A stretch of DNA of 64,000 bases. Source: Lysobacter sp. MMG2 (GTDB taxonomy: Bacteria; Pseudomonadota; Gammaproteobacteria; Xanthomonadales; Xanthomonadaceae). Below the pieces are notes generated by a model. The model was given only the letters and a program-made list of their open reading frames with translations, did not search any database and was not told the origin of the DNA. The stretch lies in the NCBI RefSeq assembly GCF_016735495.2, contig NZ_JAERQY020000001.1, forward strand, positions 434,001 to 498,000. The letters run 5' to 3'. Positions 36,103 through 64,000 of this stretch are shown one piece after another (positions within the stretch are counted from its first letter, which is position 1; each line of letters opens with the position of its first letter). A program made the position numbers and the translations under genes.

Positions 36103-37188
36103 TCAATACGCATCGGCCACCCGCGCCGCCACGATCTTCGGCCTGCGAACCCGCATGACCGGCGTGCGGCGTACCGACGTGCGGTAACCGTCGGGATTCA
36201 TCGCCTGCCACCGCCACGCGTCCCGGCACATCGCGTCCACGTCGAACTCCGCGCGCCAGCCCAGCAGTTCCTGCGCCAGCGAGGGATCGGCGAAGACCGA
36301 TGCCGCATCGCCGGGGCGGCGGTCGACGATCTCGTAGGGAATCCGCCGCCCGCTCGCCCGCTCGAACGCGTGCACCAGTTCCAGCACGCTCACGCCGCGG
36401 CCGGTGCCGAGGTTGACGGTCACGCTGCGATCCTCGCGCACCATGCACTCCAGCGCGTCCACATGCGCGCGCGCCAGGTCCACGACATGGATGTAGTCGC
36501 GCACGCCGGTGCCGTCCACGGTGGGGTAGTCGCCGCCGAACACGCGCAGTTTCTCGCGAACGCCCACGGCGACCTGGCAGATGTAGGGCATCAGGTTGGT
36601 CGGCTCGCCGCAGGGGTCCTCGCCGATGAGGCCGGAGGCGTGCGCGCCCACCGGATTGAAGTAGCGCAGGTTCGCCGCGCGGAAACCGGTGTCGGCAGTG
36701 CACAGGTCGCCGATGAGTTGCTCGGCCACCAGCTTGGTGCGTCCGTAGGGGTTCATCACCGACAGCGCCGCGTCTTCGCGAACCGGCACCTGGGCCGGCT
36801 CGCCATAGACCGTGGCCGATGAACTGAACACCAGCCGGCGCACGCCCGCCGCCTGCATCGTCTGCAGCAGGACGATGGTCCCGCTGATGTTGTTGTCGAA
36901 GTACTCCAGCGGGCGTCGGCAGGAATCGCCCACCGCCTTGAGTGCGGCGAAGTGCAGCACCGCGTCGAAACGGTACGTGGCGAACAGCACCGACAACGCC
37001 CCGCGATCGCGCAGGTCGACACGATGCACCGGGACCGGCATGCCGGCCAGGCGACGCAGGCGCGGCACCACGCGCGCGGAACTGTTCACGCCGCTGTCGG
37101 CGACGACCACCTGGTGGCCGCGTTCGGCCAGGCTCAGGCAGGTATGGCTGCCGATGTAGCCCGCGCCACCGCAGACGAGGATTCGCAT
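36103..37188 (-). CDS. galE: UDP-glucose 4-epimerase
   Basis: A 361-aa short-chain dehydrogenase-type epimerase that supplies UDP-galactose (or UDP-GalNAc) for polysaccharide. NAD-binding GGAGYIGSHTCLSLAERGH opens the protein. SSSATVYGEP and the catalytic YGRTK (Tyr-x3-Lys) follow. LRYFNPVGAHASGLIGEDP and GTGVRDYIHVVDLA are typical GalE. It is about 20 residues longer than E. coli GalE, with a basic C-terminal tail. It is divergent from the EPS operon across a 272-bp gap and is the left border of the polysaccharide locus. Confidence 0.94.
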   Translation of the reverse strand: MRILVCGGAGYIGSHTCLSLAERGHQVVVADSGVNSSARVVPRLRRLAGMPVPVHRVDLRDRGALSVLFATYRFDAVLHFAALKAVGDSCRRPLEYFDNNISGTIVLLQTMQAAGVRRLVFSSSATVYGEPAQVPVREDAALSVMNPYGRTKLVAEQLIGDLCTADTGFRAANLRYFNPVGAHASGLIGEDPCGEPTNLMPYICQVAVGVREKLRVFGGDYPTVDGTGVRDYIHVVDLARAHVDALECMVREDRSVTVNLGTGRGVSVLELVHAFERASGRRIPYEIVDRRPGDAASVFADPSLAQELLGWRAEFDVDAMCRDAWRWQAMNPDGYRTSVRRTPVMRVRRPKIVAARVADAY

Positions 37189-37460
37189 GGACGGTCGATT
37201 CCGGAAAGGCCCTCACCGGGCAACGCGTGACGACCGCCCGGGCGGCCGTCACGCACGCGCCGCCGGTGTTTCGTGGCGGCTCCCCCGGACGACGCTGATC
37301 CGCCGTCCTGATACCTCCAACGCAAAGTGCGGCCCGCGCCGGGCAGGTCGGAATGGCGTGAAATCCGGCATGCGCCGGCATGCCCCCGGCACGAGCCCAA
37401 TTGGCCGGATTTCCGCCGTCGCGCCGTTCGCTCAGGACGAATGCAAGGGGGTTGTCCGAC
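37189..37460. promoter_or_regulatory. divergent control region between galE and the EPS operon
   Basis: This 272-bp gap must hold promoters for both sides. Its main visible feature is a 26-bp near-perfect palindrome at 37227-37252 (12 of 13 pairs, centre CCGGG), located 39 bp upstream of galE. No confident -35/-10 pair was found on either strand. AAGGGGG ahead of 37461 is the ribosome-binding site of the first EPS gene. Confidence 0.5.
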
Positions 37461-38081
37461 ATGCGCACGTTCCACTTCGTACTCGTCATTGCTTTGATGG
37501 TGTTCGTCTCCGCCTGCGCCTCGTCGGGGCGCTCGGCAAACTCGCCGCCTCCGGCGGAATCGGAAAATCTGGTCGACGCCTACCAGATCGGCATCGACGA
37601 CATCGTCCAGGTGTCGGTGTGGCGCAACCCGGAACTGGGCATCACCGTGCCCGTCCGGCCCGACGGCAAGATTTCCGTGCCGCTCGTCGGCGACGTGTCG
37701 GCCGGCGGCCGCACGCCCAACGCCGTCGCCAAGGAGATCCAGGAGCGCCTGGCCGTCTTCGTCCGCGACCCGCAGGTGGCGGTGATCCTCACCGACCTGC
37801 GCAGCCATGAATACCTCTCCCGCGTGCGCGTGACCGGCGCCGTGCGCCAACCGATCTCCATCCCCTTCCGCCAGGGCATGACGGTGCTCGACGCCGTTCT
37901 CGCCGCGGGCGGAGTGACCGAGTTCGCCGCGCCCGCCAAGTCCGACCTCTACCGCAAGACCGGCGAAAGCACGCGCAGCTATGCCGTGCGGCTGGACCAC
38001 ATCCTGGAAGACGGCGACCTGACGACCAACTTCAAGGTCGCGCCGGGCGACGTCATCACCGTCCCGGAACGCACACTGTGA
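37461..38081 (+). CDS. Wza-family polysaccharide export lipoprotein
   Basis: A 206-aa outer-membrane lipoprotein (signal peptide, lipobox VSAC at Cys19). It carries the Poly_export domain (YQIGIDDIVQVSVWRNPELG ... VPVRPDGKISVPLVGDV) and one SLBB domain (VRVTGAVRQPISIPFRQGMTVLDAVLAAGG). This is the small one-SLBB Wza type found in exosortase-linked EPS loci. It starts the plus-strand operon and overlaps the next gene's possible GTG start. Confidence 0.92.
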   Translation: MRTFHFVLVIALMVFVSACASSGRSANSPPPAESENLVDAYQIGIDDIVQVSVWRNPELGITVPVRPDGKISVPLVGDVSAGGRTPNAVAKEIQERLAVFVRDPQVAVILTDLRSHEYLSRVRVTGAVRQPISIPFRQGMTVLDAVLAAGGVTEFAAPAKSDLYRKTGESTRSYAVRLDHILEDGDLTTNFKVAPGDVITVPERTL

Positions 38082-38092
38082 ACGGGGCATCG

Positions 38093-39691
38093 ATGGACCT
38101 GACGGTCCCGGAGACGCGCCCCTCCGCCGTCGCGGCGATGGTGCCGGTGGCCTTCGAGGAATGGCGCCGCCGCCCGGTGATGCTGGCGACGGTGTTCACC
38201 CTGATCGCGCTGGGTGCCCTGGTCTTCGGCCTGCTGCTGCCGAAGAAGTACAACTCGCAGACGACGATCCTGGTCGAGGAAAGCAACATCATCAAACCGC
38301 TGATGGAAGGCCGCGCCGTGCCGACCAGTGTGGTGAGCCGCGCCGCGATCACGCGCGAGGTCGCCTTCAGCCGCAAGACGATGGAAGAGATCCTCAAGAC
38401 CGGCGGCTGGCTGGCGAAGAACCCCACGCCGCTGCAGAAGGATCAGATCATCGAGATGATCACCGGCCGCACGATCATCTCCAATCCGCGCGACAACCTC
38501 ATCCGCGTGTCCTACACCGACACCGATGCGGCGCGCGCGCACGACGTCACCCAGCGCTTCGCCGAACTGATCATCCAGGAAAGCCTGGCGACCAAGGCGA
38601 ACGAAAGCCGCGACGCCTACGACTTCATCGACTCCCAGGTGCGCGCGTACCACAAGAAACTCACCGACGCCGAGTCCAAGCTCGAGGCCTACCGCAAGTC
38701 CAATCCGGACGCGCGCCCGGGCATCGACGGCGACGTGAACTCGCGCATCGGCGAGCTGCGCCGCATGGCCGACACCTCGCGCATGGAGCTGATGGACCTG
38801 GAATCGCAGGGCAATGCGCTGCAGGGCCAGCTCAACGGCGAGAACGAAGTCAACGTGGTGCAGACGCGTTCGGGCCAGCTGCTGGCGCGCATGGCCGAAC
38901 TGGAAGCCGAGCACGACAAGCTGATGATGAACTACACCGAACAGCATCCGGACGTGGTGCGCATCCAGCACCAGATTCGCGACCTGGAAGAAGAAGTCCG
39001 CAACGAAGACGCACGCGTGGCCGCGCGCAAGGCCGCCGGTCCCGGCAATTCGTCGGGGCAGGACATGGCCAGCAACGGCACCGCGCTGGGCGGCGTCGCC
39101 GGGTTCAACCCGCTGTACGGCGAACTCAAGAGCAAGCTCTCCGAGAACCGCCGCCAGGCCGCCGCGGTGACGTCGCGCATCAACACCAGCCAGGCCCTGC
39201 TCGATCAGGAACTGGCGCGCAGCCGCCACATCGCCGCTTCCGAGAGCACGCTCGCCGAGCTCTCGCGCGACTACGAAGTCAACCGCGATCTCTACCAGGA
39301 CCTGCTCAAGCGCCGCGAGAACGCGCGCGTGTCGATGAGCCTGGACTCCGAGCAGCGCGGCCTGAGTTTCCGCGTGCAGGAACCCGCCAGCTTCCCGCTG
39401 CGCGGTGTCGGCCTGCGTCTGGTCCACGTCGCCAGCGCCGGCCTCGGCGCCGCCGCATTGGCGCCGTTGCTGCTGCTGTTCGGCTTCGTCCGCCTGGATC
39501 CGCGCGTGCGTTCGCCCTATCAGATCGAAACAGCGGCGGCGCTGCCGGTGCTGGGCTCCGTGCCGCGCTACCAGACCGCGCCTTCGCGCCGCCAGGGCAC
39601 GCGCCGCTTCGTGATCGCCGCGATGATCTTCCTGGTGGTACCGCTCGTGTACGGCCTGACCCTCGCCCTGAAGATGGTGAACCTGCAATGA
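38093..39691 (+). CDS. Wzz/GumC-type polysaccharide co-polymerase
   Basis: A 532-aa inner-membrane protein controlling chain length. One N-terminal helix (about 29-47) is followed by a ~390-residue periplasmic segment rich in charged helices (coiled-coil, about 170-350), then a membrane helix near 440-462. A final helix near 508-528 follows a cytoplasmic segment. No fused kinase is present; the separate next gene replaces it. The start is uncertain: ATG at 38093 with GGGG at 5 bp, or GTG at 38078 overlapping the wza stop. Confidence 0.9.
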   Translation: MDLTVPETRPSAVAAMVPVAFEEWRRRPVMLATVFTLIALGALVFGLLLPKKYNSQTTILVEESNIIKPLMEGRAVPTSVVSRAAITREVAFSRKTMEEILKTGGWLAKNPTPLQKDQIIEMITGRTIISNPRDNLIRVSYTDTDAARAHDVTQRFAELIIQESLATKANESRDAYDFIDSQVRAYHKKLTDAESKLEAYRKSNPDARPGIDGDVNSRIGELRRMADTSRMELMDLESQGNALQGQLNGENEVNVVQTRSGQLLARMAELEAEHDKLMMNYTEQHPDVVRIQHQIRDLEEEVRNEDARVAARKAAGPGNSSGQDMASNGTALGGVAGFNPLYGELKSKLSENRRQAAAVTSRINTSQALLDQELARSRHIAASESTLAELSRDYEVNRDLYQDLLKRRENARVSMSLDSEQRGLSFRVQEPASFPLRGVGLRLVHVASAGLGAAALAPLLLLFGFVRLDPRVRSPYQIETAAALPVLGSVPRYQTAPSRRQGTRRFVIAAMIFLVVPLVYGLTLALKMVNLQ

Positions 39692-40458
39692 GCGCCGCCA
39701 ATCCCGAACTCGCACCCGAACTCGCACCCGCGCAGGAAGACTCCGCCCACGAAGACGGCCGCGAACGCGACCTTCGCCCCACCATCTCGCGCACGGCGGG
39801 CGTTGCCCAGCTCACGCCGACGCAGCTGGAAGACCGCGCGATCATCCACCGCGGCGGCGTGTCGCGTCCGGAGGTCGATGCCTTCCGCGAACTGCGCACG
39901 CGCCTGCTTTCGGCGATGGAAGGCAGCTTCGTGGCCCTGGTCGCGCCGGTCAGTGCCGGCAGCGGCGGCAGCTTCGTCGCGCGCAACCTCGCCACCGCGA
40001 TGGCCTTCGACGAAACCAAGAGCGCGTTGCTGGTCGATTGCGACCTGCGCCATCCCACGCAGGCGCGCACGATGAAGATCGAGACCGAGGCCGGCGGCCT
40101 GGTCGAGTACCTGGAAGATCCCGAAGGCGACCTGGGCGATGTCATCTACGAGACCGGCGTGAACGGCTTGCGCCTGATCCCGGCCGGCACGCCGCGTGAA
40201 ATCGGCGCGGAGTACTTCTCCTCCGTGCGCATGCGCCTGCTGCTGGATTCGATCCGCAGCCGGCATCCGAACTGCTACGTGTTCCTGGACGGACCGCCGG
40301 TGCGGGGCACGCCGGACGCACGCATCCTGGCCGACATCGCCGACGTGGTGATCCTCGTCGCCGGCTACGGACGCGACACGGCCGCGTCAATCGCGCAGGC
40401 GGCGGCGAATTTCGATCCGGGCAAGTTCGCCGGCGTCGTCTTCAACGAAGGCGTTTGA
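39688..40458 (+). CDS. BY-kinase-like ATPase with degenerate P-loop (EPS partner)
   Basis: A 256-aa CpsD/CapB-like protein encoded right after its co-polymerase (ATGA overlap). Deviant Walker A' LLVDCDLRHP (114-123) and Walker B-like CYVFLDGPP are present. The P-loop itself (87-95, PVSAGSGGS) has no lysine where active BY-kinases have GKS/GKT. The C-terminal tyrosine cluster is also missing: the protein ends AGVVFNEGV. It is therefore probably a regulatory pseudo-kinase, or an ATPase using other residues. The first ~40 residues are acidic and low-complexity. Confidence 0.85.
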   Translation: MSAANPELAPELAPAQEDSAHEDGRERDLRPTISRTAGVAQLTPTQLEDRAIIHRGGVSRPEVDAFRELRTRLLSAMEGSFVALVAPVSAGSGGSFVARNLATAMAFDETKSALLVDCDLRHPTQARTMKIETEAGGLVEYLEDPEGDLGDVIYETGVNGLRLIPAGTPREIGAEYFSSVRMRLLLDSIRSRHPNCYVFLDGPPVRGTPDARILADIADVVILVAGYGRDTAASIAQAAANFDPGKFAGVVFNEGV

Positions 40459-40480: not shown

Positions 40481-41836
40481 ATGGCCAACGGAAGACTCCA
40501 TGCGGTCGCGGGCTCGTCCCGTCGATCCGCGCTCTGCATCGCCCTGTTGGCCACGCTTCCGATGGGAGCGAAGGCGGCGCAGATCAACTATTCGATCGGC
40601 GGACGCGTCGAGCACAGCGACAACATCGCGCTGACGGAAACCAATCCGCAGGAAGAAAGCACGCTCGCCACCGACCTGGACTTCGACCTCACCCAGACCG
40701 GCCGCAACACGGCACTCACCGCACGCGGCGGCCTGGAGTACCTCTACTACACCGGCGATCTCTTCGACGACGACCTGCGCGCCACGATGGTGGGCACCTT
40801 CAACTGGAACACGTGGCAGGACCGGCTGAAGTTCATCATCGAGGACTACGCGAACTACGAGCCGATCGACGTACTCGCCGCCGACGCGCCCAACAACCAG
40901 CAGCAGGTGAACGTGTTCGTCGCAGGTGCGCAGTTCAACCTGCGACCGGGCGCGGCCACGCGCGTGCGGCTGGACCTTCGCTACAACAACTACTGGGCCG
41001 AGGAAACCGACGACTTCAACGGCGACCGCTACAACGCGGCCTTCACCCTGTGGCAGGAACCCAGCGCGACCACGCGCTTCGCCGTGACCGTGGAAGGCAG
41101 TGAGGTCAAGTACGACCAGGTCAGCCTCGACACGCTCGGCGCCGACTACCGCCGCCTGGACACCTACGTCACCTGGAACCGCAACCTGGCCAACATCAAC
41201 GTCGAAGTACGCGCCGGCTATTCGTGGATCGAGCTGACCGACTTCGGCACCAAGGACGACGCGCCGCTGTTCCGCACCGTGTTCACCTGGCGCGCGACAC
41301 CGCGCAGCACGCTGGACATGGGCCTGTACTACCAGTTCTCCGACGCCGCGCAGGAACTGATGATCAACTCCGGCGACCCGACGCTGGGCGGCACGCCGCT
41401 CACGCCGGTGGACACGCCCAGCGCGGATCCGACCGGCGTCACCATCGGGCCGGACCTGTACCGCCAGCGTCGCATCGACATCGGCTACCGCTACAACGGC
41501 GAGCGCTTCAACGCCAGCGTTCGCCCGTACTACGAAGACAACGACTACATCGACCCCACCGCCGACAGCGAAGGCAACTACGGCATCGGCGTGGGCATGA
41601 GCTGGGCGATCCAGCCCTCGCTGTTCCTGACCGGCTCGATGTCCGCCGGCGTGCGCAGTTTCGACAGTTTCGACCGCGACGACGACGACTTCTCCGTCTA
41701 CGTCGGCATCCTGAAGGTGCTGACCCGCCACTGGAGCTTCGCCTTCGATCTGCGCCACCAGGAACGCGACTCCAACACTCCCGAAGCGAGCTATGACGAG
41801 AATGCCGCCATCTTCAGCGTTCGCTATACCCGCTGA
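40481..41836 (+). CDS. outer-membrane beta-barrel protein of the EPS locus
   Basis: A 451-aa protein with a signal peptide (ALLATLPMGAKA) and a repetitive alternating polar/aromatic pattern ending SVRYTR, typical of large beta-barrels. It begins INYSIGGRVEHSDNIALTETNPQEES, reminiscent of the EpsL/TIGR03016-type outer-membrane proteins that accompany PEP-CTERM/EPS loci. A likely role is as the outer-membrane exit or receptor for the polysaccharide, with Wza. GGGGAG lies upstream of the ATG at 40481. Confidence 0.8.
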   Translation: MANGRLHAVAGSSRRSALCIALLATLPMGAKAAQINYSIGGRVEHSDNIALTETNPQEESTLATDLDFDLTQTGRNTALTARGGLEYLYYTGDLFDDDLRATMVGTFNWNTWQDRLKFIIEDYANYEPIDVLAADAPNNQQQVNVFVAGAQFNLRPGAATRVRLDLRYNNYWAEETDDFNGDRYNAAFTLWQEPSATTRFAVTVEGSEVKYDQVSLDTLGADYRRLDTYVTWNRNLANINVEVRAGYSWIELTDFGTKDDAPLFRTVFTWRATPRSTLDMGLYYQFSDAAQELMINSGDPTLGGTPLTPVDTPSADPTGVTIGPDLYRQRRIDIGYRYNGERFNASVRPYYEDNDYIDPTADSEGNYGIGVGMSWAIQPSLFLTGSMSAGVRSFDSFDRDDDDFSVYVGILKVLTRHWSFAFDLRHQERDSNTPEASYDENAAIFSVRYTR

Positions 41837-43007
41837 GCCGGCGGCCGCCGTGCGCGCGGGCGATCGGCGCATCCGACTGCTGCTGATCACCGACACGCCG
41901 GTGCTCGCGCCCGGCGGCAGCGAACGCTTCCTGCAGAACCTCGCCACGCGCCTTCCGGCCGATGCGTACCGGATCACGCTGGTGCAGCTGCACGAGCAGA
42001 AGATGCCCGGCAACCACGGCCATCACCTGCTGAGCCAGCCGCACCTGCGCATGCTGTCGCTGCCGGTGCACGCGGTGTACGACCGCAGCGGCGTGAGCGC
42101 CTGGCGCCGCCTGGGCGAGATGCTGCGTCGCGAACGCTTCGATGTGGTGCAATCGCAACACGAGAAGGCCGACGTGCTCAACGCGCTCCTGCCGCGACTG
42201 CCGGGCACCGTGTACATCTCCAACCGCCGCGACATGGGCTTCAAGAAGAGCCCGAAGCTGCAATACGCCTTCCGCTGGCTGAATCCGCGCTACGACACCG
42301 TCGTCGCACCGGCGCGGCAGATCCTCGCGGGCCTGGCCGATTGCGAGCGTCTGGACCCGCTGCGCATGACCTGGATCCCCAACGGCGTGGACACGCGCCG
42401 TTACGCGCCCGCGCCGTTGCAGCGCCGGCTCGATGCGCGCGCCGCGCTGGGGCTGGATTCCGAAGCGATCGTGTTCGGCTGCGTCGCACGCATGACGCCA
42501 GTGAAGCGCCACGTCGACCTGATCGAAGCCTTCGCCACCGTGCATCGGGAGCTGCCGCAGGCGCACCTGCTGCTGGTCGGCGACGGCCCCGACCTGCCGC
42601 AGGTGCAGGCGAAGATCGCCGAATTCGGCGTGGGCGACGCGGTGACGCTGCTCAGCTTCCGCGACGACGTCGACGACCTGTTGCCGGCGATGGACGCGCT
42701 GGTGCTGTGCTCCTCCAGTGAGGGCATGTCCAACGCGATTCTGGAGGCGATGGCCTGCGGCTTGCCGGTCGTCGCCACCGCGGTCGGCGGCAACCTGCAC
42801 CTGGTGCAGCACGAACAGACCGGCCTGCTGGTTCCGCCGATGGATCCGATCTCGCTGGCCGCTTCGCTGCAATGGCTGGCGCAATCGCCGCACGCGCGCC
42901 GCCGCATGGGACTGGCCGCACGCACGCGCATCGAGCGCGAGTTCTCGCTCGACGCGATGGTGCTGGCCTTCGACCAGCTCTACCGGCGCCTGCTGGGCCG
43001 TGCCTGA
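41793..43007 (+). CDS. GT4-type glycosyltransferase
   Basis: A 404-aa GT-B glycosyltransferase. The N-terminal domain begins IRLLLITDTPVLAPGGSERFLQNL (donor/acceptor glycine loop). The C-terminal group-1 domain contains VDTRRY, VFGCVARMTPVKRHVDLIEAF, LLLVGDGPDL and EGMSNAILEAMACGLPVVATAVGGN with the E-x7-E motif. The start at 41793 would overlap the barrel gene by 44 bp; a GTG at 41850 is an alternative with no overlap. It adds a sugar to the EPS repeat unit on the cytoplasmic face. Confidence 0.88.
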   Translation: MTRMPPSSAFAIPAEPAAAVRAGDRRIRLLLITDTPVLAPGGSERFLQNLATRLPADAYRITLVQLHEQKMPGNHGHHLLSQPHLRMLSLPVHAVYDRSGVSAWRRLGEMLRRERFDVVQSQHEKADVLNALLPRLPGTVYISNRRDMGFKKSPKLQYAFRWLNPRYDTVVAPARQILAGLADCERLDPLRMTWIPNGVDTRRYAPAPLQRRLDARAALGLDSEAIVFGCVARMTPVKRHVDLIEAFATVHRELPQAHLLLVGDGPDLPQVQAKIAEFGVGDAVTLLSFRDDVDDLLPAMDALVLCSSSEGMSNAILEAMACGLPVVATAVGGNLHLVQHEQTGLLVPPMDPISLAASLQWLAQSPHARRRMGLAARTRIEREFSLDAMVLAFDQLYRRLLGRA

Positions 43008-46536: not shown

Positions 46537-46546
46537 GGTGCTGCCC

Positions 46547-50763: not shown

Positions 50764-50884
50764 GGCCGGCGCAGTCTTGCATGAACAGGCGGGCTGCGCA
50801 CGCGAAGGCCGAAGCACGGCGTACAACGCGTTCTTCACGGTATCGGGCCCTCGCCCGCTCCCTTTCCCGCGCCCGGTGTTCGCC

Positions 50885-55905: not shown

Positions 55906-56711
55906 CACGGCACCTGTTCGGTCATGCGCTGCGCCAGCTGGGCCACGGCGCGTCGCGGAAACACCTGGCCGCCGAAGCGCGACGGCACGGTCCATTCCGG
56001 CCGCTCGCCTTCGTCGAGCAGCACGGCCTCCACCGACACGCCGTTGGCGCGCTGCTCGCGCGCGAAGCGGTCGAGTTCCTCGTCCATCTCCCACACCGCC
56101 ATGCGCACACGGGTGCCGCTCGGCAAGCGCAGCTTCGCCGCGTCCAGGCCTTCCAGCGCCGACAGCAGCGCGTCGTCGACACCGAAGCCGAGCAGCTCGC
56201 CGGCATCGGACTCGTGGCGCGCGTTGACGTAGCGCCCGCTTTCGTGAAGTTGCCGCTGGTGCTGCGCTCTCCACTCGCGCACCAGGCGCGCACCGTCGAG
56301 TTGCGGATCCCACAGCACCACTTCCGCCGGCTCGGCGCTGCGCTCCAGGTGTGCGAACAGCGGCAACGCGGCGCTGCGCAGCGCCAGCCAGTGCAGGCGC
56401 GGTACTTCGCTGCGACGCAGCAGTTCGCTCGATGCCTGCTGCAGATCGTCGAGCATGCCCGGCAGCGTGAGCGCGGTGTCCTCGCCGGCCGAATCGCCCG
56501 TGCCGAACCAGTCGAAGGTCAGCGTCGGAACGCCATGCTGACCGACCGCTTCCGCCAGCGCCCACAAGGCTCGATGGCTGCGTATGCCGTCCTGCAACAG
56601 CGGCGCGCAGACCAGTAACGCGTGGTCGGTCGACGCCGCGGCGCCGTCGCATTCGTGCAGCAGGCCGAACAGGTGGCGGTCCGCCGCGCCGAAGAAGAAG
56701 GGCGCGCTCAT
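55902..56711 (-). CDS. alpha/beta hydrolase resembling exosortase-A-associated hydrolase 2
   Basis: A 269-aa protein starting SAPFFFGAADRHLFGLLHE. Alpha/beta-hydrolase features are LLVCAPLLQDGIRSHRALWALAEAV and LTFDWFGTGDSAGE. The usual nucleophile elbow is replaced by LALRSAALPL, lacking GxSxG, as in exosortase-A hydrolase 2 proteins. It may be catalytically dead or use other residues. It overlaps the synthetase stop by 4 bp (ATGA), so it is translated with the NRPS. Confidence 0.82.
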   Translation of the reverse strand: MSAPFFFGAADRHLFGLLHECDGAAASTDHALLVCAPLLQDGIRSHRALWALAEAVGQHGVPTLTFDWFGTGDSAGEDTALTLPGMLDDLQQASSELLRRSEVPRLHWLALRSAALPLFAHLERSAEPAEVVLWDPQLDGARLVREWRAQHQRQLHESGRYVNARHESDAGELLGFGVDDALLSALEGLDAAKLRLPSGTRVRMAVWEMDEELDRFAREQRANGVSVEAVLLDEGERPEWTVPSRFGGQVFPRRAVAQLAQRMTEQVPW

Positions 56712-59700
56712 TCCACCGTCCCCGGCGTGCGCAGCAGGCGCTTCATCTGCCGCGCCATGCGCGCGCCGACGCCGCCCTTTTCCTCGCGGACGATGTGCTC
56801 GGGCAGGTCGGAGGCGATCTGCGCAAGGTTCTGCGCCGCCAGCCGCATCAGCTGGATGCGCACGCCCGTGTCCTTCACCACGCGGCTGGACATCTGCACG
56901 GCAAGCATCGAATTGCCTCCCAGGTCGAAGAAGTTGTCGTCGATGCCGACCTCGACACCGAGCAGGTCCTTCCACACGCTGCGCAGGTACTCGGCGCGCG
57001 GGTCCTGCGCGGCCACGCCATCGCCCGTTGCGGCGGTTTCGCGCGGTGCGTCCGGCGCGGTCACGGCGACCCGACCCTGCGCGCGCAGGATGGCGTTGCT
57101 GAGCTGGGCCACCAGCGACGGCGATTCGATCATCACGCGGTGGTCGCCGGGGATCGAGAGGACGTCCACCGAACCGACCAGACCGTCCCAGCCCAGCGTG
57201 GGCTTGTTACGCAGCATCGAGGGTTGATCGCTGGCGCGGAACAGCACCAGCGCGCCCGGATAGGGCTTGACCACGTACTTCCCGTACGCGCGCATGTGCG
57301 TGGCTTCCAGCTCCGCATAGCGCACGTTGTGCGGCAGGGCCTCGCCCGCTTCACGCGCGGCCTGCGCCTGCTGGCGCAGCTTGGATGCCTGCAGTCGGCC
57401 GTTGACCACACCGCCGATCGTGGCGATGCGTTCGCCCAGCGATTGCCCCTGCATGCGTCGATGCAGTCGCTGCACGCGCGCGGACAGGCCGCGGCGGGCG
57501 TCGTCGCGATAGCGCAGGCCGAATTCGGCGGAGGTGTCGACCAGGCCCAGCAGGCCGACCGTCTCACCGGCAGCCATCAACTGCTGCGCCATTTCGTAGG
57601 CGATGATGCCGCCCATCGAACCGCCGGCCAGGTGGTACGGGCCGTGCGGCTGCACGCTGCGGATCTCGGCCACGTAACGCTGCGCCATCGCCTCCACGCT
57701 TTCCAGCGGTGCGGTGCGGCCGTCCAGACCCAGTGCCTGCAGGCCGTACACCGGGATGCCGGCAGGCATCGCTTCGGCCAGCGGGCGGTAGTTGAGCACG
57801 TTGCCGCCCACGGCATGCACCAGGAACAGCGGCTTGGCATCGCCCTGCGCGCGGATGGACACCAGCGGCGCCCACGGATCGCGCTCGCCGCCGTCCAGCG
57901 CGTCGGCGTCGTTGCGGGCGCGCTGGTACTCGCGCGCCAGCGCACGCACCGTGCGCGCGGTGAGCAGCGTTGCCAGCGGCAGGTTCACGCCGGTCTCGCG
58001 GTTGAAACGGTGGAACATCTGCACGGCCTGCAACGAGTGCCCGCCGAGCGAGAAGAAATCATCGTCCGCGCCGATGTCGGGCTTGCGCAGCAGGTCGCGC
58101 CAGATCGCCAGCAGCTGCGTGCCCAGTTCGTCGAGCGGTTCGTACAGTTCGGCGTCCAGCGCCGCCGGGGCCGGCGCAGCCTCGATCGGCGTCGACTCGA
58201 CGCTGCGGCCGAACTGCAGCGCCTGGCCGTCGTCGAACTGCGTGATCTGATCCAGCGTCAACGACGGATCGCGTCCCAGCGCCTTGAGCACGGCGATGTA
58301 ACGGTCGCGCAGCAGCGCGGCGGTGTCGTCGAGGAAGATGTCGGCGTTGTAGATGAAGCCGCCCGACAGACCCGTGTCCTGTTCGACGAACCACAGGCCC
58401 AGGTCCTGCGTGGACGCGGTCTGGAACACCGGATAACGCTCGTGCGTGAGCGGACCCCATTCGCACACGCGCTGGCGGATGTCCTGGAACGAGAACAGCG
58501 CGTGGTAGAGCACGGCGCCCCCTTCGCGGCTGCGTACGCTGAGCTCCCGCACCAGGTCTTCCAGGCGGATGTCGGGGTGCGCGAAGCTGTCGAGCACCAC
58601 GTCCTTCACCTGCTTGACGGCCTGCGCGAACGTCATGGTCGGATCGATCTCCATCCGAAGCGGCAGCAGGCTGGTGAAGTAACCCATCAGGTTCTCCACC
58701 TCGGCCGTGTTGCGACCGCGCACCGGCGTGCCGACGATCAGCTCGCGCAGGCCCGAGGTGCGGCTGATCAACGCGAAGTACGCGGTGAGCAGCACCATGT
58801 ACAGCGTGGCATCGACCTGCTTGGCGGTGTCGTGCAGCGCTGCCGTCACGTCGTGCGCCACCACGATCCGATGCGTGACGCCCTTGCCCGACATCCCGGG
58901 ACGACGCGGCATGTCGGTCGGCAACGCTTCGATTCCCCTGGACGCCGGGCCCTGCGCTGTACCGCCGAGGCGCTCGCGCCAGAAGGCCAGTTGCTTGGCG
59001 TACTCCGGCCCCTGCAGCCATTCGTGGTGCCAGGCGGAGAAGTCGGCGTAGCTCACCGTCAGTTCCGGCAGCGTCGGCTCGCGGCCTTCGATCTGCGCGG
59101 CGTAGAGCTCGGCCATGTCGGTGTACATCAGGTCGAACGACCAGCCGTCCCAGATGAGGTGGTGGGTCATGAAGAACCACACGTGTTCTTCCGGCCCCAG
59201 GCGGAACAGGCGCGAGCGGACCAGCGGCGCGCGGTCGAGTTCGAACGGCGTCTGGATCAACGCGTCCATGCGACGCGAGACTTCGGCCTCGCGCTCGTCT
59301 TTCGGCAAGTGGCTGACGTCGACGACGTCGGTGATGTCGACATCCACCGCGTCGTGCACGATCTGCATCGGTTCGCCGTCGACCAGACCGATCGTCGTGC
59401 GCAGCACGCTCTGGCGCTGGATCATCGCGTCGATCGCGGCCTGGAAGGCATCCAGCTGCAACGGCCCGCGCAGTCGGTGCGCGCTGGGCGTGTTGTAGGT
59501 GATCTGGCCCGGATTGAACTGCTCCAGCAGGTACAGGCGTTCCTGCATCACCGACATCGGCCCGCGCGTGCGGTCGGCCAGCGGCTTGATCGGCTCGCGC
59601 TTCGGCGCGGCTTCGCCGTCGATGCCCTGCACCATGCGCGCGAGCTTGGCCACGGTCGGGCCGTCGAACAGAGCACGCAGCGACAGCGCGATGCCCAGTT

Positions 59701-62700
59701 CCTTGTTGATGCGCGAGGTCAGCTGCGCGGCCAGCAGCGAGTGTCCGCCCAGCGAGAAGAAATCATCGTCCACGCCGACTTCGGCCACGCCCAGCACCTG
59801 CGCCATCGCCTCGGCGATGGTGCGTTCCAGCGCGTTGCGCGGCGCGACGCGTTCGCCGGCCAGCTTCACCGCCAGGTCCGGCACCGGCAGGGACTTGCGG
59901 TCGATCTTTCCGTTGGGCAGCAGCGGGATCGCGTCGAGGAACAGGATGTGCTGCGGGATCATGTAGTCAGGCAGCGAGCCCTTGAGGTAGGACGCGAGCA
60001 GCGATTCGCCCTCCCCCGTGGTCAGGCTGTCGGACACCACATAGGCCACCAGCCGCACATCGCCCGGGCGATCCTCGCGCGCCACGACCACGGCGCGCGC
60101 GACCTGCGGATGCGCCGCGAGCAGTGCTTCTATCTCGCCCAGTTCGATGCGATAACCGCGCACCTTCACCTGGAAATCCAGGCGGCCCTGGTGCTCGAGC
60201 ACGCCGTCCGGACGCCAGCGGCCGCGATCGCCGGTGCGATACAGCAGCGCACCGCTCGCGGTGGAGAACGGATCGGGCACGAAGCGCTCGGAGGTGAGTT
60301 CGGGGCGGTTGAGATACCCCAGCGTCACGCCGTCGCCGCCGATCCAGATCTCGCCCGGCACGCCGAGCGGGCACAGCTCGCCGCGCGGATCCAGGATCCA
60401 CACCTGCGTGTTGTCGATCGGCCGACCGATGTGGATGTCGCTTGCCGTCGTCACGCGCGAGCAGGTCGACCACACCGTGGTTTCGGTCGGCCCGTACACG
60501 TTCCACAGCGAGCCGCAGCGCTTGAGCAACTGCGCGGCCAGGTCCGGCGGCAGCGCTTCGCCGCCGCACAGGATCTTGAAGTTCGCATCGCCCTTCCATT
60601 CGGCGTCCAGCAGCAGCCGCCACGAAGCCGGTGTTGCCTGCATCACGGTGGCGCCACTGGCGGCAATCAGCGCCTTCAGCGCGACGCCGTCGGCGGCGGT
60701 GACGCGGTCGGCCAGTACGACGCGCGCGCCCACGCTCAGCGGCAACAGCAGTTCGAGCACGGCGATGTCGAACGATAGCGTGGTCACCGCGACGAGGCGG
60801 TCGTCGGCGGACAGCCCGGGCTCTTTCGCCATGCTCGCCAGGAAGTTGCTTACCGCGCGATGCGGCACCTGCACGCCTTTCGGTCGGCCGGTGGAGCCGG
60901 AGGTGTAGATCACGTACGCGATCGACTCCGGCTGCGCCGCGCCCTCGTCGCGGCCCAGGCGCGTGGCCGGCAGCGATGCAAGTTCGTCGTGCAGCGTGTC
61001 CAGCGACAACACGGGGCGCCCGCGCAGATCGAAATGGGCGGCGTGCTTCGTCGTCGTCAGCAGCGCAGCCAGGCCCGCGTCGCCGGCCATGTAGGCCAGG
61101 CGTTCGGCGGGGAAATTGGGGTCCAGCGGCACATAGCCCGCGCCGGCCTTCAACACGCCGAGCAGGCCGGCCAGCATGTCCACGCCGCGATCGAGCACCA
61201 ACCCGACCAGCGTTCCGCGGTGCACGCCGCGCGCGCGCAACAGGTGCGCGATGCGGTTGGCGCGTGCTTCCAGTTCGTCGTAGCGGATGGACTCGCCGTT
61301 GAACTCCACCGCCACGCGCTCCGGCGTGCGATCGCATTGACGTTCGAACGCCTCGTGCATGCGGCACTCGCGGTCGAACGCGACCGCTGCCGGTTGCAGC
61401 GCCTGCAGTTCATCGCGCGCGGCATCGGAGACCACCGACAACCGGCCGAACGCAAGCGTGGGCCGTGCCACGGCGGCGCGCAACAGCGTTTCGTACGCGG
61501 CCAGCCAGCGGCGGATCGTGGCGTTGTCGAACAGGTCGGTGTTGTACTGGCACTCCAGGCGCATGCCGCCCTGCACCTGCACGGCGTTGACGAACAGCTC
61601 GAAGTTCTCGTAGCTGCGTGGGTTGGTGATCAGGCGCATGCCCAGGCCGTGGAAGCCGGTGCTTTCCTGGTCCATCGCCTGGTCGATGTTGAACATCACG
61701 CTGCACAGCGGCAGGCGTGCGGGATCGCGCTGCAACGGCAGCTTCTTCAGCAGCGTGCCGAAGGTGTAGCGCTGGTGTTCGATGGCATCCAGCAGCGTGG
61801 ACTGCGCGGCGCCCAGTGCCTGTTCGAACGGCTGCGCCTGGTCGAGTTCGAAGCGCAGCGGCAGAAGATTCACGCAATGACCGACCAGATGGTCGTGGCC
61901 GTCCACCGACTGACCGGCGGCGGGAATGCCGATGACCACGTCGTTCTGCGCGGTCAGGCGCGACAGCAGGCCGGCGAAACCCGCCAGCAACGTCGCGAAC
62001 AGGCTCGCGCCCTGGCGCGCACCGAGGCGACGCACGGCGGCGACGAGTTCGTTGTCGAGGATGTGGTCTTCGCGGATCGACGCAAACGTGCGGCGCGTCG
62101 GCCGCGTGCGGTCGGTCGGAAGATCCAGCACCGGGCCGCCGTCGGCAAAACGCTTGAGCCAGTACGCCTCGTCGGAACGGTACGTCGCACCGTGCGGATG
62201 TTCGGCCTCGGCCAGCGCGTAGTCGGCGAAGGATTCGGCGGGCGGCAGCGGCTGCGCGCTCTGGCCCACCGCCTGCGTATACAGCGTGCCCAGTTCGCGC
62301 ACGATCACCCACCACGACCAGCCGTCGCAGACCAGGTGATGCGCGGTGAGCACGAGGTGGTGATGGTCGTGCGACAGACGCAGCAGTTCGGCGCGCAGCA
62401 GTGCGCCGTGGTCGAGATCGAACGGCGTCTCCACGACCTCGCGCGCGTGCGCGGCGATGCGTGCGGCGCGCTCGGCGTCGTCCAGTGCGGACAGGTCGAT
62501 CAGCGGCAAGTCGATGGCGCGCTCGTCGCCGACGCACAGCGTCTTGCCGTCGGGGCCGAAGTTGGCGCGCAGGATGTCGTGCCGCACCACCAGCCCGGCC
62601 AGCGCGGCCTGCAGCGCATCCACGGACAGCGGACCGCGGAAGTCCAGCGAGATCGACTCGTTGTACGCCAGCGAGGCGTCGTTGCCGAGGCTATCGGCCA

Positions 62701-62836
62701 GCCAGACTTCGCGCTGCGGTTCGGTGGTGGGCGCTACGCGGGAGAGCGGGCCGTCGGCGAACGGATCGTAGTCGACGGCCGTGTCGGTTCCATTCGACTT
62801 GTCCAACCTGCCCTTATCGAACACGGCTGCATTCAT
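56708..62836 (-). CDS. nonribosomal peptide synthetase, C-A-T-C-T-TE-T
   Basis: A 2042-aa multidomain synthetase. Condensation domain 1 has HHLVCDG near residue 166. The adenylation domain has YTSGSTGRPKG (about 643-653), YGPTETTVW, GYRIELGEIE (about 894) and LPNGKIDRK (about 972). Carrier 1 has its phosphopantetheine Ser at 1033 (LGGHSLLAAQ). Condensation domain 2 has HHLIWDG near 1225. Carrier 2 has Ser1601. The thioesterase has GGSMGG with Ser1740 and GDHR near 1898. Carrier 3 has Ser1976 (GGNSMLAVQ), followed by a basic tail. A domain order with a carrier after the thioesterase, and a second condensation unit without adenylation, is unusual. The ATG at 62836 overlaps the aminotransferase stop (ATGA). 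Confidence 0.95.
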   Translation of the reverse strand: MNAAVFDKGRLDKSNGTDTAVDYDPFADGPLSRVAPTTEPQREVWLADSLGNDASLAYNESISLDFRGPLSVDALQAALAGLVVRHDILRANFGPDGKTLCVGDERAIDLPLIDLSALDDAERAARIAAHAREVVETPFDLDHGALLRAELLRLSHDHHHLVLTAHHLVCDGWSWWVIVRELGTLYTQAVGQSAQPLPPAESFADYALAEAEHPHGATYRSDEAYWLKRFADGGPVLDLPTDRTRPTRRTFASIREDHILDNELVAAVRRLGARQGASLFATLLAGFAGLLSRLTAQNDVVIGIPAAGQSVDGHDHLVGHCVNLLPLRFELDQAQPFEQALGAAQSTLLDAIEHQRYTFGTLLKKLPLQRDPARLPLCSVMFNIDQAMDQESTGFHGLGMRLITNPRSYENFELFVNAVQVQGGMRLECQYNTDLFDNATIRRWLAAYETLLRAAVARPTLAFGRLSVVSDAARDELQALQPAAVAFDRECRMHEAFERQCDRTPERVAVEFNGESIRYDELEARANRIAHLLRARGVHRGTLVGLVLDRGVDMLAGLLGVLKAGAGYVPLDPNFPAERLAYMAGDAGLAALLTTTKHAAHFDLRGRPVLSLDTLHDELASLPATRLGRDEGAAQPESIAYVIYTSGSTGRPKGVQVPHRAVSNFLASMAKEPGLSADDRLVAVTTLSFDIAVLELLLPLSVGARVVLADRVTAADGVALKALIAASGATVMQATPASWRLLLDAEWKGDANFKILCGGEALPPDLAAQLLKRCGSLWNVYGPTETTVWSTCSRVTTASDIHIGRPIDNTQVWILDPRGELCPLGVPGEIWIGGDGVTLGYLNRPELTSERFVPDPFSTASGALLYRTGDRGRWRPDGVLEHQGRLDFQVKVRGYRIELGEIEALLAAHPQVARAVVVAREDRPGDVRLVAYVVSDSLTTGEGESLLASYLKGSLPDYMIPQHILFLDAIPLLPNGKIDRKSLPVPDLAVKLAGERVAPRNALERTIAEAMAQVLGVAEVGVDDDFFSLGGHSLLAAQLTSRINKELGIALSLRALFDGPTVAKLARMVQGIDGEAAPKREPIKPLADRTRGPMSVMQERLYLLEQFNPGQITYNTPSAHRLRGPLQLDAFQAAIDAMIQRQSVLRTTIGLVDGEPMQIVHDAVDVDITDVVDVSHLPKDEREAEVSRRMDALIQTPFELDRAPLVRSRLFRLGPEEHVWFFMTHHLIWDGWSFDLMYTDMAELYAAQIEGREPTLPELTVSYADFSAWHHEWLQGPEYAKQLAFWRERLGGTAQGPASRGIEALPTDMPRRPGMSGKGVTHRIVVAHDVTAALHDTAKQVDATLYMVLLTAYFALISRTSGLRELIVGTPVRGRNTAEVENLMGYFTSLLPLRMEIDPTMTFAQAVKQVKDVVLDSFAHPDIRLEDLVRELSVRSREGGAVLYHALFSFQDIRQRVCEWGPLTHERYPVFQTASTQDLGLWFVEQDTGLSGGFIYNADIFLDDTAALLRDRYIAVLKALGRDPSLTLDQITQFDDGQALQFGRSVESTPIEAAPAPAALDAELYEPLDELGTQLLAIWRDLLRKPDIGADDDFFSLGGHSLQAVQMFHRFNRETGVNLPLATLLTARTVRALAREYQRARNDADALDGGERDPWAPLVSIRAQGDAKPLFLVHAVGGNVLNYRPLAEAMPAGIPVYGLQALGLDGRTAPLESVEAMAQRYVAEIRSVQPHGPYHLAGGSMGGIIAYEMAQQLMAAGETVGLLGLVDTSAEFGLRYRDDARRGLSARVQRLHRRMQGQSLGERIATIGGVVNGRLQASKLRQQAQAAREAGEALPHNVRYAELEATHMRAYGKYVVKPYPGALVLFRASDQPSMLRNKPTLGWDGLVGSVDVLSIPGDHRVMIESPSLVAQLSNAILRAQGRVAVTAPDAPRETAATGDGVAAQDPRAEYLRSVWKDLLGVEVGIDDNFFDLGGNSMLAVQMSSRVVKDTGVRIQLMRLAAQNLAQIASDLPEHIVREEKGGVGARMARQMKRLLRTPGTVE

Positions 62837-64000
62837 GCGCTCACCTTCATGTACTTGCCCGGCTCCGCCGGGTTCGGCACGAACCAGGCCGGCGTGCCGT
62901 CGGGCTCGCGGCCCAGGCGCGCGCCGGGCACGACGGGCTTGCTCGCGTCCATCACCGTCTTCGGCGTGGCCGCGCGGCGCGGCAGCAGTTCCATGTCCTG
63001 CAACTCGCTCACCGATTCCTTGAACGCGGTGGCGATCCGCGCGATGTCCTCGTCGCTGTGCGCCGTGGTGATGAAGCACGGGAAGTTGTCGAGGATGTGG
63101 ATGCCGCGCAGGCGCATCGCCGCGAACAGCAGGTCCTGCAGCGGGTGGTTCTCGGGCCAGTGGGTCTTCCACACCGACGCGTACTGCTTCACCGACACCG
63201 GCGCACCGACATCGGCGCAGTAGGCGTTGATGTCCGCCGCCAGCGCTTCGGCCTTGGCGTTGAGGCGCTTCTGCAACTCGCCGCCGTCGGCCTTGAAGTG
63301 TTCGAGCACGGCCTTGGCCGCGACCAGCGCCAGCGGATGGCGCACGAAGGTGCCGGCGAAGTACGTCACGCCCACCGTCGGCACAGAATCGTCGCCGTAC
63401 TGCCAGTGGCCGCCGTCGAGCGCGTCCATGTATTCGCGCTTGCCGGCAATCACGCCGATCGGGAAACCGCCGCCGACGACCTTGCCGTAGGTCGCGATGT
63501 CGGCCTTGATGCCGAAGATCGCCTGCACGCCGCCCGGGTTGGAGCGGAAGCCGGTGACCACTTCGTCGAAGATCAGCAGCGCGCCGTTGTCCTGGGTGAG
63601 CTGGCGCAGTTCCTTCAGGAACTCGACCGGACGGAAGTCCAGGCGGCGGCTCTGCACCGGCTCGATCAGCACCGCGGCGATCTCGCCGATGCGCGAGCGG
63701 ATGATCTCCATCGACTCCGGCGTGCCGTAGTCGAGCACCAGCACGTTTTCGGCCGTGTTGCGCAGAATGCCTGGCGCCGCCGGCACCGCGCGCAGCGACT
63801 TGGTGCCGCGCACGATCACTTCGTCGACGATGCCGTGATAGGAGCCGGTGAACAGCACCACCGTGCTGCGCGCCGTCACCGTGCGGGCGATGCGCAGCGC
63901 ACCGAGCACCGCTTCGGAACCGGTGTTGCACAGCGCGGCGCGGTCGTGGCCGGTGAGCTCGCACACCAGCTGCGCGACTTCGCCGGCGACGGGGTGCTGC
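62833..64000 (-). CDS. class III aminotransferase domain protein (5' end outside window)
   Basis: At least 388 residues of a PLP-dependent fold-type I aminotransferase, close to glutamate-1-semialdehyde aminomutase and the AMT domains of mycosubtilin/iturin-type synthetases. Motifs are ALCNTGSEAVLGALRIARTVT, LLIFDEVVTGFRSNPGG and the PLP Lys in TYGKVVGGGFPIGVIAG. After the domain a ~45-residue tail with EPDGTPAWFVPNPAEPGKYMKVSA is like the ends of AMT modules that lead into condensation domains. The reading frame stays open to the window edge (QHPVAGEVAQLVCELTGHD), so more of the protein, perhaps further synthase domains, lies outside. Confidence 0.88.
   Translation of the reverse strand, partial: QHPVAGEVAQLVCELTGHDRAALCNTGSEAVLGALRIARTVTARSTVVLFTGSYHGIVDEVIVRGTKSLRAVPAAPGILRNTAENVLVLDYGTPESMEIIRSRIGEIAAVLIEPVQSRRLDFRPVEFLKELRQLTQDNGALLIFDEVVTGFRSNPGGVQAIFGIKADIATYGKVVGGGFPIGVIAGKREYMDALDGGHWQYGDDSVPTVGVTYFAGTFVRHPLALVAAKAVLEHFKADGGELQKRLNAKAEALAADINAYCADVGAPVSVKQYASVWKTHWPENHPLQDLLFAAMRLRGIHILDNFPCFITTAHSDEDIARIATAFKESVSELQDMELLPRRAATPKTVMDASKPVVPGARLGREPDGTPAWFVPNPAEPGKYMKVSA

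What the first reader, a model, noticed from the sequence alone, without database searches (positions are those of the whole stretch)
36103..64000. Wzx/Wzy-type polysaccharide locus fused to a small NRPS assembly line
The sequence shows galE, Wza, Wzz, a kinase-like protein, an outer-membrane barrel, five glycan-building enzymes, two deacetylases, a polymerase and a flippase. In the same convergent locus are an AMT-type aminotransferase, a 2042-aa NRPS and two hydrolases, all tightly coupled by 4-bp overlaps on the minus strand. The combination suggests an exopolysaccharide carrying an amino-acid or acyl modification made by the NRPS, or a NRPS product exported with the glycan. It does not match a named system I know, although each part resembles exosortase-A loci.
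Basis: partly seen in the sequence, partly recalled or inferred. Interest (0 to 1): 0.85.

Follow-up and report, generated by a model that had tools for sequence, protein, structure and literature searches.

The report
Peptide assembly line feeding exopolysaccharide locus
In Lysobacter and many of its relatives, the genes for a slime polysaccharide sit in one conserved block with a small peptide-making assembly line and two paired enzymes that probably hand the peptide over to the sugar, which would be a new way for bacteria to decorate their coats.

Summary
The window (a Lysobacter; nearest named kin L. soli, arvi, changpingensis) cuts the locus: the "aminotransferase" is the end of a ~2433-aa A-T-KS-AT-ACP-AMT hybrid, and priming transferase, PPTase and sugar dehydrogenase follow. 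Minus-strand order: hybrid > C-A-T-C-T-TE-T NRPS > hyd2 > hyd1 > Wzx, with 4-7 bp overlaps or gaps. Wza, Wzz and priming transferase pass XrtA models; no exosortase was found. In 297 family genomes, 57 of 70 hyd2-positive ones have the NRPS within 12 kb; of 43 with an NRPS and Wzz on one contig, 40 have them within 45 kb. Similar blocks occur in some betaproteobacteria. New: hyd2-hyd1, relatives of XrtA "hydrolases 1/2", directly follow a carrier protein in 8 of 8 canonical and 6 of 10 divergent loci examined; carrier and hyd2 share an open frame in seven loci; hyd1 keeps Cys and His; hyd2 lacks the nucleophile. Best reading: the pair moves an amino-acid or peptide thioester from the carrier to the polysaccharide precursor before flipping. 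Glycan transfer is inferred; in several lineages no glycan genes were seen beside the pair.

The parts
36103..37188 (-). galE, UDP-glucose 4-epimerase (361 aa)
   Evidence: TIGR01179 421 bits, above cut-off
37461..38081 (+). Wza-type export protein, XrtA type (206 aa)
   Evidence: TIGR03027 199 bits, above cut-off 180
38093..39691 (+). Wzz-type chain-length protein, XrtA type (532 aa)
   Evidence: TIGR03007 334 bits, above cut-off 279
39688..40458 (+). tyrosine autokinase-like (256 aa)
   Evidence: TIGR03018 147 bits, below cut-off 231
40562..41836 (+). outer-membrane barrel, PEP-CTERM-system type (424 aa)
   Evidence: TIGR03016 82.5 bits, cut-off 90.9
41850..43007 (+). GT4-type glycosyltransferase
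   Evidence: TIGR03088 218 bits, below cut-off
43015..44169 (+). GT4-type glycosyltransferase
   Evidence: TIGR03088 150 bits, below cut-off
44219..45505 (+). Wzy / O-ligase-like membrane protein (428 aa)
   Evidence: TIGR03097 66.7 bits and TIGR04370 21.6 bits, both below cut-off
45526..46536 (+). polysaccharide deacetylase family protein
   Evidence: PF01522 49 bits, above cut-off
46538..47311 (+). polysaccharide deacetylase family protein
   Evidence: several deacetylase models E 1e-9 to 1e-4, all below cut-off
47308..48438 (+). GT2-type glycosyltransferase
   Evidence: matches to several GT2 models, all below cut-off
48449..49696 (+). GT4-type glycosyltransferase
   Evidence: TIGR03087 216 bits, below cut-off
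50642..52720 (+). beta-helix protein, C-terminal hydrophobic stretch and basic tail
   Evidence: PF13229 28 bits, NF041518 35 bits; tail read by eye
53523..55019 (-). Wzx-type flippase, last gene of the NRPS gene run
   Evidence: PF01943 70.9 bits; 4-bp gap to hyd1
55024..55908 (-). hyd1: alpha/beta hydrolase with Cys nucleophile elbow (GLCSGA), related to XrtA hydrolase 1
   Evidence: TIGR03100 72.5 bits, below cut-off 168; C137 and H265 invariant in 29 of 29; model pLDDT 88
55902..56711 (-). hyd2: alpha/beta-hydrolase fold without nucleophile, related to XrtA hydrolase 2
   Evidence: TIGR03101 64 bits, below cut-off 203; alignments; model pLDDT 92
56708..62836 (-). NRPS B (2042 aa): C1-A-T1-C2-T2-TE-T3
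   Evidence: Pfam: 2 C, 1 A, 3 T, 1 TE; carrier and C motifs by script, TE elbow by eye
62833..64000 (-). C-terminal part (AMT) of hybrid A (A-T-KS-AT-ACP-AMT, about 2433 aa); the gene runs on beyond the window to about 70134

Best explanation
A polysaccharide locus of XrtA-like type (without exosortase) that includes its own peptide assembly line. SHOWN from sequence: hybrid A (A-T-KS-AT-ACP-AMT) and NRPS B (C-A-T-C-T-TE-T) lie in one run of genes with hyd2, hyd1 and the Wzx flippase. INFERRED from domain logic: A loads an amino acid, extends it with malonate and transaminates the beta-keto group to a beta-amino group; B adds glycine and perhaps a second residue; the chain reaches the last carrier domain T3. 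INFERRED from linkage, fusions and residues: hyd2, a hydrolase fold without nucleophile, docks on T3, and hyd1, with Cys137 and His265, takes the acyl group as a thioester and passes it to an acceptor. Most likely the acceptor is the lipid-linked repeat unit, perhaps an amine exposed by the neighbouring deacetylases, before Wzx flips it. The XrtA 'hydrolases 1/2' of other bacteria, which follow a free acyl carrier protein, would be the simple form of the same machine.
For: Linkage: (57 of 70; 40 of 43). Gene run A-B-hyd2-hyd1-wzx with overlaps. In G139 the TE-ended NRPS gene overlaps wzx by 4 bp; in G169 two genes that look like GT2 glycosyltransferases (by eye) stand between hyd1 and wzx and overlap hyd1 and each other by 4 bp. 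Carrier directly before hyd2-hyd1: 8 of 8 canonical and 6 of 10 divergent loci examined; 7 of 43 hyd2 rows have a carrier in the same open frame. The carriers before hyd2 in the Lysobacteraceae form one well-supported group that holds the window's T3 (100/99), while its T2 groups with TE-linked carriers (92/86); label changes 8 against a shuffled mean of 33.4, 0 of 500 as low. Cys and His invariant in 29 of 29 hyd1. Lines of Rhodanobacter, Frateuria, Dyella, Pseudoxanthomonas, Thiomonas and Lautropia have no hyd1 hit in the stretch first read beside them, but all 12 such genomes searched hold a hyd1 match, in four of them (G308, G310, G311, G315) 21-27 kb from the line on the same contig. Minimal form in G366: flippase, EctB-type diaminobutyrate transaminase (above cut-off), A-T-hyd2 fusion, hyd1, polysaccharide deacetylase in a row, with an A code that recall assigns to diaminobutyrate. 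G485: NRPS, hyd2, hyd1, one gene, then a MOP flippase and an EpsL-type protein, both below cut-off. G069 has the EPS locus without NRPS, hyd1, hyd2 and PPTase hits. No TE hit in 14 of 20 family loci, so another offloading enzyme is needed. Precedents read as passages in PMC8748450: LgnA and CmaE move aminoacyl groups between carriers; CouN7 transfers an acyl unit from a carrier to a free-standing substrate.
Against: No chemistry was tested. The cassette is also found without visible glycan genes: of the six divergent loci with a carrier, only G366 and G485 showed them; G360, G460, G504 and G512 showed none in 20-40 kb. In two Aquabacterium records (G301, G302) the 10 neighbour proteins scanned are ordinary enzymes and regulators, and in Hydrogenophaga G307 the fetched 36 kb shows another NRPS and no EPS hit. 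Even of the 8 canonical loci, G443, G449 and G330 gave no hit to this locus's glycan genes in 20 kb. So hyd2-hyd1 may be a general offloading pair. The window's NRPS also has its own TE with a GGSMGG elbow (read by eye), which could release a free peptide. Four divergent hyd1 loci (G386, G517, G329, G574) showed no carrier upstream (G574's contig ends there). In Rhodanobacter and kin the line is not next to hyd1, and in Thiomonas and Lautropia hyd1 is on another contig. The acceptor is guesswork. No A domain precedes T2 or T3 in the window. G013 has the A/B line 725 kb from its Wzz. The hyd1 fold is a common esterase fold. The genomes counted are related, so the counts are not independent.
Confidence: 0.55

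Rival explanations
1. The NRPS makes a free small peptide (metallophore, signal or antibiotic). The TE releases it, and the MOP-family Wzx or another pump exports it. Sharing a locus with EPS reflects common regulation as biofilm functions.
For: The TE in B has a GGSMGG elbow (by eye). Related lines in Larkinella and Spirosoma end in a TE without hyd2-hyd1 hits. Several carrier-hyd2-hyd1 loci show no glycan genes.
Against: No TE hit in 14 of 20 family loci, which keep a carrier before hyd2-hyd1 with the exception of G013. The line overlaps or abuts the flippase gene. A flippase recurs near hyd1 in unrelated loci (G485, G366).
Confidence: 0.22
2. hyd1 and hyd2 are type II (editing) thioesterases that clear mis-loaded carriers; another enzyme, such as the TE or the orphan C2-T2, does the real transfer.
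For: Type II thioesterases are also small alpha/beta hydrolases beside NRPS genes (recalled). hyd1 matches general esterases by sequence and fold.
Against: Cys, not Ser, in 29 of 29 hyd1; a second, nucleophile-less partner beside it; the same pair follows a lone ACP in 8 of 8 XrtA-type loci read; no TE in most family lines.
Confidence: 0.15
3. hyd1-hyd2 is a carrier-to-carrier shuttle like CmaE or LgnA that moves the peptide to another carrier or module, and the TE or an unseen enzyme finishes.
For: Such shuttles are known (CmaE, LgnA; passages of PMC8748450; Cys in CmaE and SyrC is recalled). Some relatives have a separate C-A-T-TE protein near wzx: between wzx and hyd1 in G158 and G191, beyond wzx in G056. 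In the window T2-TE and T3 come from different carrier groups.
Against: Most of the 20 family loci show no second NRPS as acceptor.
Confidence: 0.2

Closest known systems
XrtA / PEP-CTERM (exosortase A) exopolysaccharide loci
   Same: Wza, Wzz and EpsB-type priming transferase above the curated XrtA cut-offs; related kinase, barrel, glycosyltransferases and hydrolases 1 and 2.
   Different: No exosortase match in the genome; hydrolases far below cut-off; where the 8 canonical loci read have a small ACP (and 5 of them a ligase hit nearby), this one has a two-protein PKS/NRPS line.
Hybrid PKS/NRPS lines with KS-AT-ACP-AMT modules (mycosubtilin or microcystin type, recalled)
   Same: Beta-amino acid formation by an integrated class III aminotransferase (domains; chemistry inferred).
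   Different: Most family relatives end in a bare carrier followed by hyd2-hyd1, and the line sits in an EPS locus.
CmaE / SyrC / LgnA shuttles and CouN7 acyltransferase
   Same: Proteins that move an acyl group from a carrier domain to another acceptor (passages of PMC8748450).
   Different: No sequence comparison was made; here there are two paired proteins, one without nucleophile and sometimes fused to the carrier.
Dlt system (D-alanylation of teichoic acid, recalled)
   Same: Adenylating enzyme and carrier protein feed an amino acid to a surface polymer.
   Different: No DltB-type protein showed up in the family scans of the locus genes (not searched for by itself); here a multi-residue peptide is predicted and transfer is put in the cytoplasm.

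Membership tests
XrtA / PEP-CTERM locus | exosortase (PF09721) in the genome | tested here: not met
   0 matches in own genome; the same search rings in 5 of 20 other genomes
XrtA / PEP-CTERM locus | PEP-CTERM target proteins | tested here: inconclusive
   0 matches, but nothing rang in any control genome either
XrtA / PEP-CTERM locus | XrtA-type Wza, Wzz and priming transferase | tested here: met
   TIGR03027, TIGR03007, TIGR03013 above cut-off
XrtA / PEP-CTERM locus | hydrolases 1 and 2 (TIGR03100, TIGR03101) over cut-off | tested here: not met
   72.5 against 168 bits; 64 against 203 bits
Wzx/Wzy-dependent exopolysaccharide locus | Wzx flippase | tested here: met
   PF01943 above cut-off
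Wzx/Wzy-dependent exopolysaccharide locus | Wzy polymerase | tested here: inconclusive
   TIGR03097 66.7 and TIGR04370 21.6 bits, both below cut-off
Modular hybrid PKS/NRPS | C, A, T, KS, AT, ACP domains | tested here: met
   Pfam over cut-off. Motif script found the C, three T, ACP and AT motifs; its patterns for KS, TE and AMT returned nothing, and I read the KS Cys and TE Ser by eye in the printed sequence
Modular hybrid PKS/NRPS | a PPTase to activate the carriers | tested here: met
   Sfp-like gene at 73414, one of two PF01648 matches in the genome
CmaE/SyrC/CouN7-type acyl shuttle | nucleophile and His of an alpha/beta hydrolase; acts on a carrier domain | tested here: inconclusive
   Cys and His invariant, carrier adjacency and fusions; activity and homology not tested
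Type II (editing) thioesterase | hydrolysis of mis-loaded carriers | not testable with these tools
   needs enzymology

The most novel reading that the evidence does not exclude
Carrier-protein/hyd2/hyd1 is a widespread, undescribed machine for aminoacylating or peptidylating bacterial surface glycans, in which hyd1 is a Cys transferase and hyd2 its carrier-docking partner. The XrtA loci use a lone ACP, some bacteria an A-T(diaminobutyrate)-hyd2 fusion, and the Lysobacteraceae a full PKS/NRPS line that puts a short beta-amino-acid peptide ending in glycine on the exopolysaccharide, with the first residue (Val, Pro, Thr, Ser or other) varying between lineages.
Probability: 0.37. Interest if true: 0.88.

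Novelty: new variant of a known kind. Interest (0 to 1): 0.74.

Why it matters
Peptide assembly lines are normally studied as makers of free small molecules. A line hard-wired into a polysaccharide locus over a bacterial family and beyond would mean that bacteria print programmed peptides on their coats. It would also give a testable biochemical role to the 'exosortase A system-associated hydrolases 1 and 2', for which my one direct paper search found none (0 papers), as partners of a carrier protein. Genome-mining tools that count such lines as orphan metabolite clusters would be misreading them.

Tried and rejected
Exosortase or PEP-CTERM sorting as the point of the locus: no exosortase in the genome. 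hyd1 as a specific known enzyme: sequence and fold searches return general esterases and lipases. Substrate of the first A domain: its code DILIIGGIMK fits no code that I recall. A stand-alone A domain for T2/T3: of 8 AMP-binding matches in the genome two are those of the line; I did not name the other six. Print: searches listed no paper that I recognised from title or abstract start as describing this coupling; open-licence PMC only, and searches listed only 10 of 77 and 10 of 30 papers. Seen of papers: passages of PMC8748450 and PMC9850573 (floc-forming EPS clusters, 'hydrolase' and 'acyl carrier' 0 times); of all others the listing.

Results against the reading: EPS hits were absent in the fetched stretches of G301, G304 and G307 and weak in G302; G360, G460, G504 and G512 showed none in 20-40 kb, nor did canonical G443, G449 and G330. 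In 27 of 92 genomes with a strong Wzz (E < 1e-70) there is no hyd2; one of these, G100, has an NRPS match 14 kb from its Wzz. Of the 27, nine loci were looked at: G069 lacks the cassette, the other eight have other gene contents; only G083's was scanned (10 genes; among them ACP, ligase and NadE-like protein).

Limits of counts: one search used places typed by hand: 69 NRPS places of 65 genomes (whose printed list was itself cut), 92 of the 104 Wzz genomes, and hyd2 places of all 70 genomes. In one of its three far cases, G057, the NRPS on Wzz's contig is not the one beside hyd2. In one search only 14 of 30 hyd1 loci were readable in the frame taken (all 14 with Cys); the others were reversed or partial. 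Of 22 hyd1 genomes over cut-off I fetched 8; of the 11 below cut-off, 10 besides the window. One search listed 32 hyd1 and 31 hyd2 relatives; 28 and 26 were aligned with the window's (dropped hyd1: L077, L106, L120, second L104; dropped hyd2: L053, L077, L106, L120, L232). The 43 rows include a few loci read twice. The printout was cut in the middle. In one search one terminal carrier (G158) missed the label by my distance rule, and few columns make support rough. A-domain code positions and meanings, the malonyl motif, and Cys in CmaE/SyrC are recalled.
Full report
What is there. The window is G000:C1:434001-498000 of a 4.17-Mb genome. Its nearest named kin in the scanned collection are Lysobacter soli, L. 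arvi, L. changpingensis and an unclassified Lysobacteraceae, 88-90% identical over the KS-AMT part. Gene calling on the window plus 24 kb beyond it and family scans give a + strand block (Wza, Wzz, kinase-like, barrel, two GT4, Wzy-like, two deacetylases, GT2, GT4) and a - strand run read from right to left: hybrid A, NRPS B, hyd2, hyd1, Wzx. A beta-helix protein gene lies between them. Beyond the window come a small gene with a DnaJ-like start (motif recalled), the EpsB-type priming transferase (TIGR03013, above cut-off), an Sfp-like PPTase, a TviB-like dehydrogenase and an epimerase.

The assembly line. Hybrid A has A-T-KS-AT-ACP-AMT and NRPS B has C-A-T-C-T-TE-T (motifs partly by script, partly by eye). 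Codes read at recalled positions suggest glycine for B's A domain. The first A domain reads as valine, proline, threonine or serine in many relatives and is unassigned in the window. Relatives with two A domains in B often read Gly-Gly. Since the window has no A domain before T2 or T3, one A domain may serve several carriers (inference).

Is the coupling real? In 297 genomes of the family a strong NRPS match was found in 140, the XrtA-type Wzz in 104 and hyd2 in 70. From these lists 57 of 70 hyd2 genomes have the NRPS within 12 kb. Of the 57, 40 have a Wzz within 45 kb of the NRPS and 14 have it on another contig of a draft. Three have an NRPS and Wzz on one contig but further apart: G038, whose two places lie at opposite ends of one contig and may be neighbours on a circle; G057, where the NRPS beside hyd2 is on another contig; and G013 at 725 kb. 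These genomes are related, so the counts are not independent. The 12 genomes of the window's genus in that search all have an NRPS match, 11 of them at 80% identity or more over nearly the whole protein. Twenty loci from the family, besides the window, were compared gene by gene. In 12 of the 20 the whole order Wzx, hyd1, hyd2, last carrier, line, DnaJ-like gene, EpsB, PPTase was found; the others lack or move single members, and G013 has the line without EPS genes. Modules come and go: no TE hit in 14 of 20, AMT missing in three (G063, G190, G048), third A domain present or absent. G069 has the EPS arrangement without NRPS, hyd1, hyd2 or PPTase hits.

Beyond the family. The named scan gave 76 loci. 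In a Rhodocyclaceae MAG (G298) and a Burkholderiales MAG (G299) the line, PPTase, hyd2 and hyd1 stand with Wza, Wzz, kinase and glycosyltransferase hits; in Thiomonas (G297) Wza, Wzz and kinase directly precede the line, without hyd hits there. In Aquabacterium (G301, G302) and Hydrogenophaga (G307) the line and hyd2-hyd1 are present, but the surroundings show no clear EPS locus. Larkinella and Spirosoma homologues end in a TE without hyd2-hyd1 hits. The lines of Rhodanobacter, Frateuria, Dyella and Pseudoxanthomonas showed neither TE nor hyd hits in the 10-kb flank. A last search with hyd1 found a match in 12 of 12 such genomes (ten of that kind, plus Thiomonas and Lautropia); in the four whose line had been placed on a contig (G308, G310, G311, G315) it lies 21-27 kb away on the same contig, while in Thiomonas and Lautropia it is on another contig.

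The hyd2-hyd1 pair. In 274 genomes of the class TIGR03100 matched in 33, 22 of them over cut-off. I fetched 8 over cut-off and 10 below it besides the window. All 8 have an open frame with an acyl-carrier motif, mostly 82-104 residues long, directly before hyd2. Six of the 10 (G360, G366, G460, G485, G504, G512) have an NRPS-type carrier there; G386, G517, G329 and G574 do not show one. In seven loci (G028, G174, G253, G366, G460, G504, G512) the carrier and hyd2 share one open frame, which argues for direct contact. A tree of 162 carrier domains puts the Lysobacteraceae carriers before hyd2, including the window's T3, in one supported group with two others; the label needs 8 changes against a shuffled mean of 33.4, 0 of 500 shuffles as low (few columns, rough support). 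hyd1 keeps Cys137 and His265 in 29 of 29 aligned sequences; hyd2 has no Ser or Cys at the elbow in the rows shown. Both model as alpha/beta hydrolases; the hyd1 model matches general esterases.

Glycan neighbours of the pair outside the family. Of the six divergent loci with a carrier, G366 and G485 show glycan genes; G360, G460, G504 and G512 show none in 20-40 kb. Of the 8 canonical loci, five (G422, G359, G436, G527, G332) gave hits to glycan genes of this locus in 20 kb and three did not (the queries were this locus's own proteins, so distant EPS genes can be missed).

Minimal forms. G366 has in a row a flippase, a diaminobutyrate transaminase (EctB, above cut-off), an A-T-hyd2 fusion, hyd1 and a polysaccharide deacetylase; G512 has the transaminase, the fusion, hyd1 and a PPTase, with ordinary housekeeping genes around. 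The A code in both reads, by recall, as diaminobutyrate, which the transaminase supports independently. G485 has hyd1 followed, one gene on, by a MOP flippase and then an EpsL-type protein on the other strand, both below cut-off.

Mechanism. The most economical reading is that hyd2 holds the last carrier and hyd1 takes the acyl group on its Cys and gives it to an acceptor. Because the line and the pair abut the flippase in the window's genus, because a flippase or deacetylase stands near the pair in some unrelated loci, and because most family lines have no TE, I put the acceptor on the lipid-linked sugar, perhaps an amine freed by deacetylation. That last step is inference. Proteins that move aminoacyl groups off carriers are known (passages of PMC8748450).

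Verdict. The chemistry is open. The hyd2-hyd1 link to carriers, shared with XrtA loci, is what I would take to the bench first.

Noticed in passing
50642-52720 (+): Beta-helix protein whose C-terminus has a hydrophobic stretch and a basic tail, like a sorting signal; shared with the two genus relatives read (G045, G129), not seen in the nine other homologues read. The genome has no exosortase match.
   Followed up: partly
34267-36024 (+): Sulfatase-fold membrane protein with weak likeness to Kdo-lipid A phosphoethanolamine transferase, beside galE at the left edge.
   Followed up: no
beyond the window, 70542-71237 (+) in extended coordinates: Small gene with a DnaJ-like start (motif recalled) found between the line and the priming transferase in most of the 20 relatives; role unknown.
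   Followed up: no
G307 (L185-L186): Hydrogenophaga record with two large NRPS genes in tandem (4457 and 5012 aa), each followed by hyd2 (the second cut by the contig end).
   Followed up: no
G386 (L223) and G574 (L229): Two hyd2-hyd1 pairs in tandem with no carrier found nearby (G574 is a 5.9-kb contig); they may act on something else.
   Followed up: no
G083 (L155-L156) and similar loci: Lysobacteraceae EPS loci with other cassettes; G083 has an 82-aa ACP, a CoA-ligase-like protein, a NadE-like protein and a PaaK-like ligase.
   Followed up: partly
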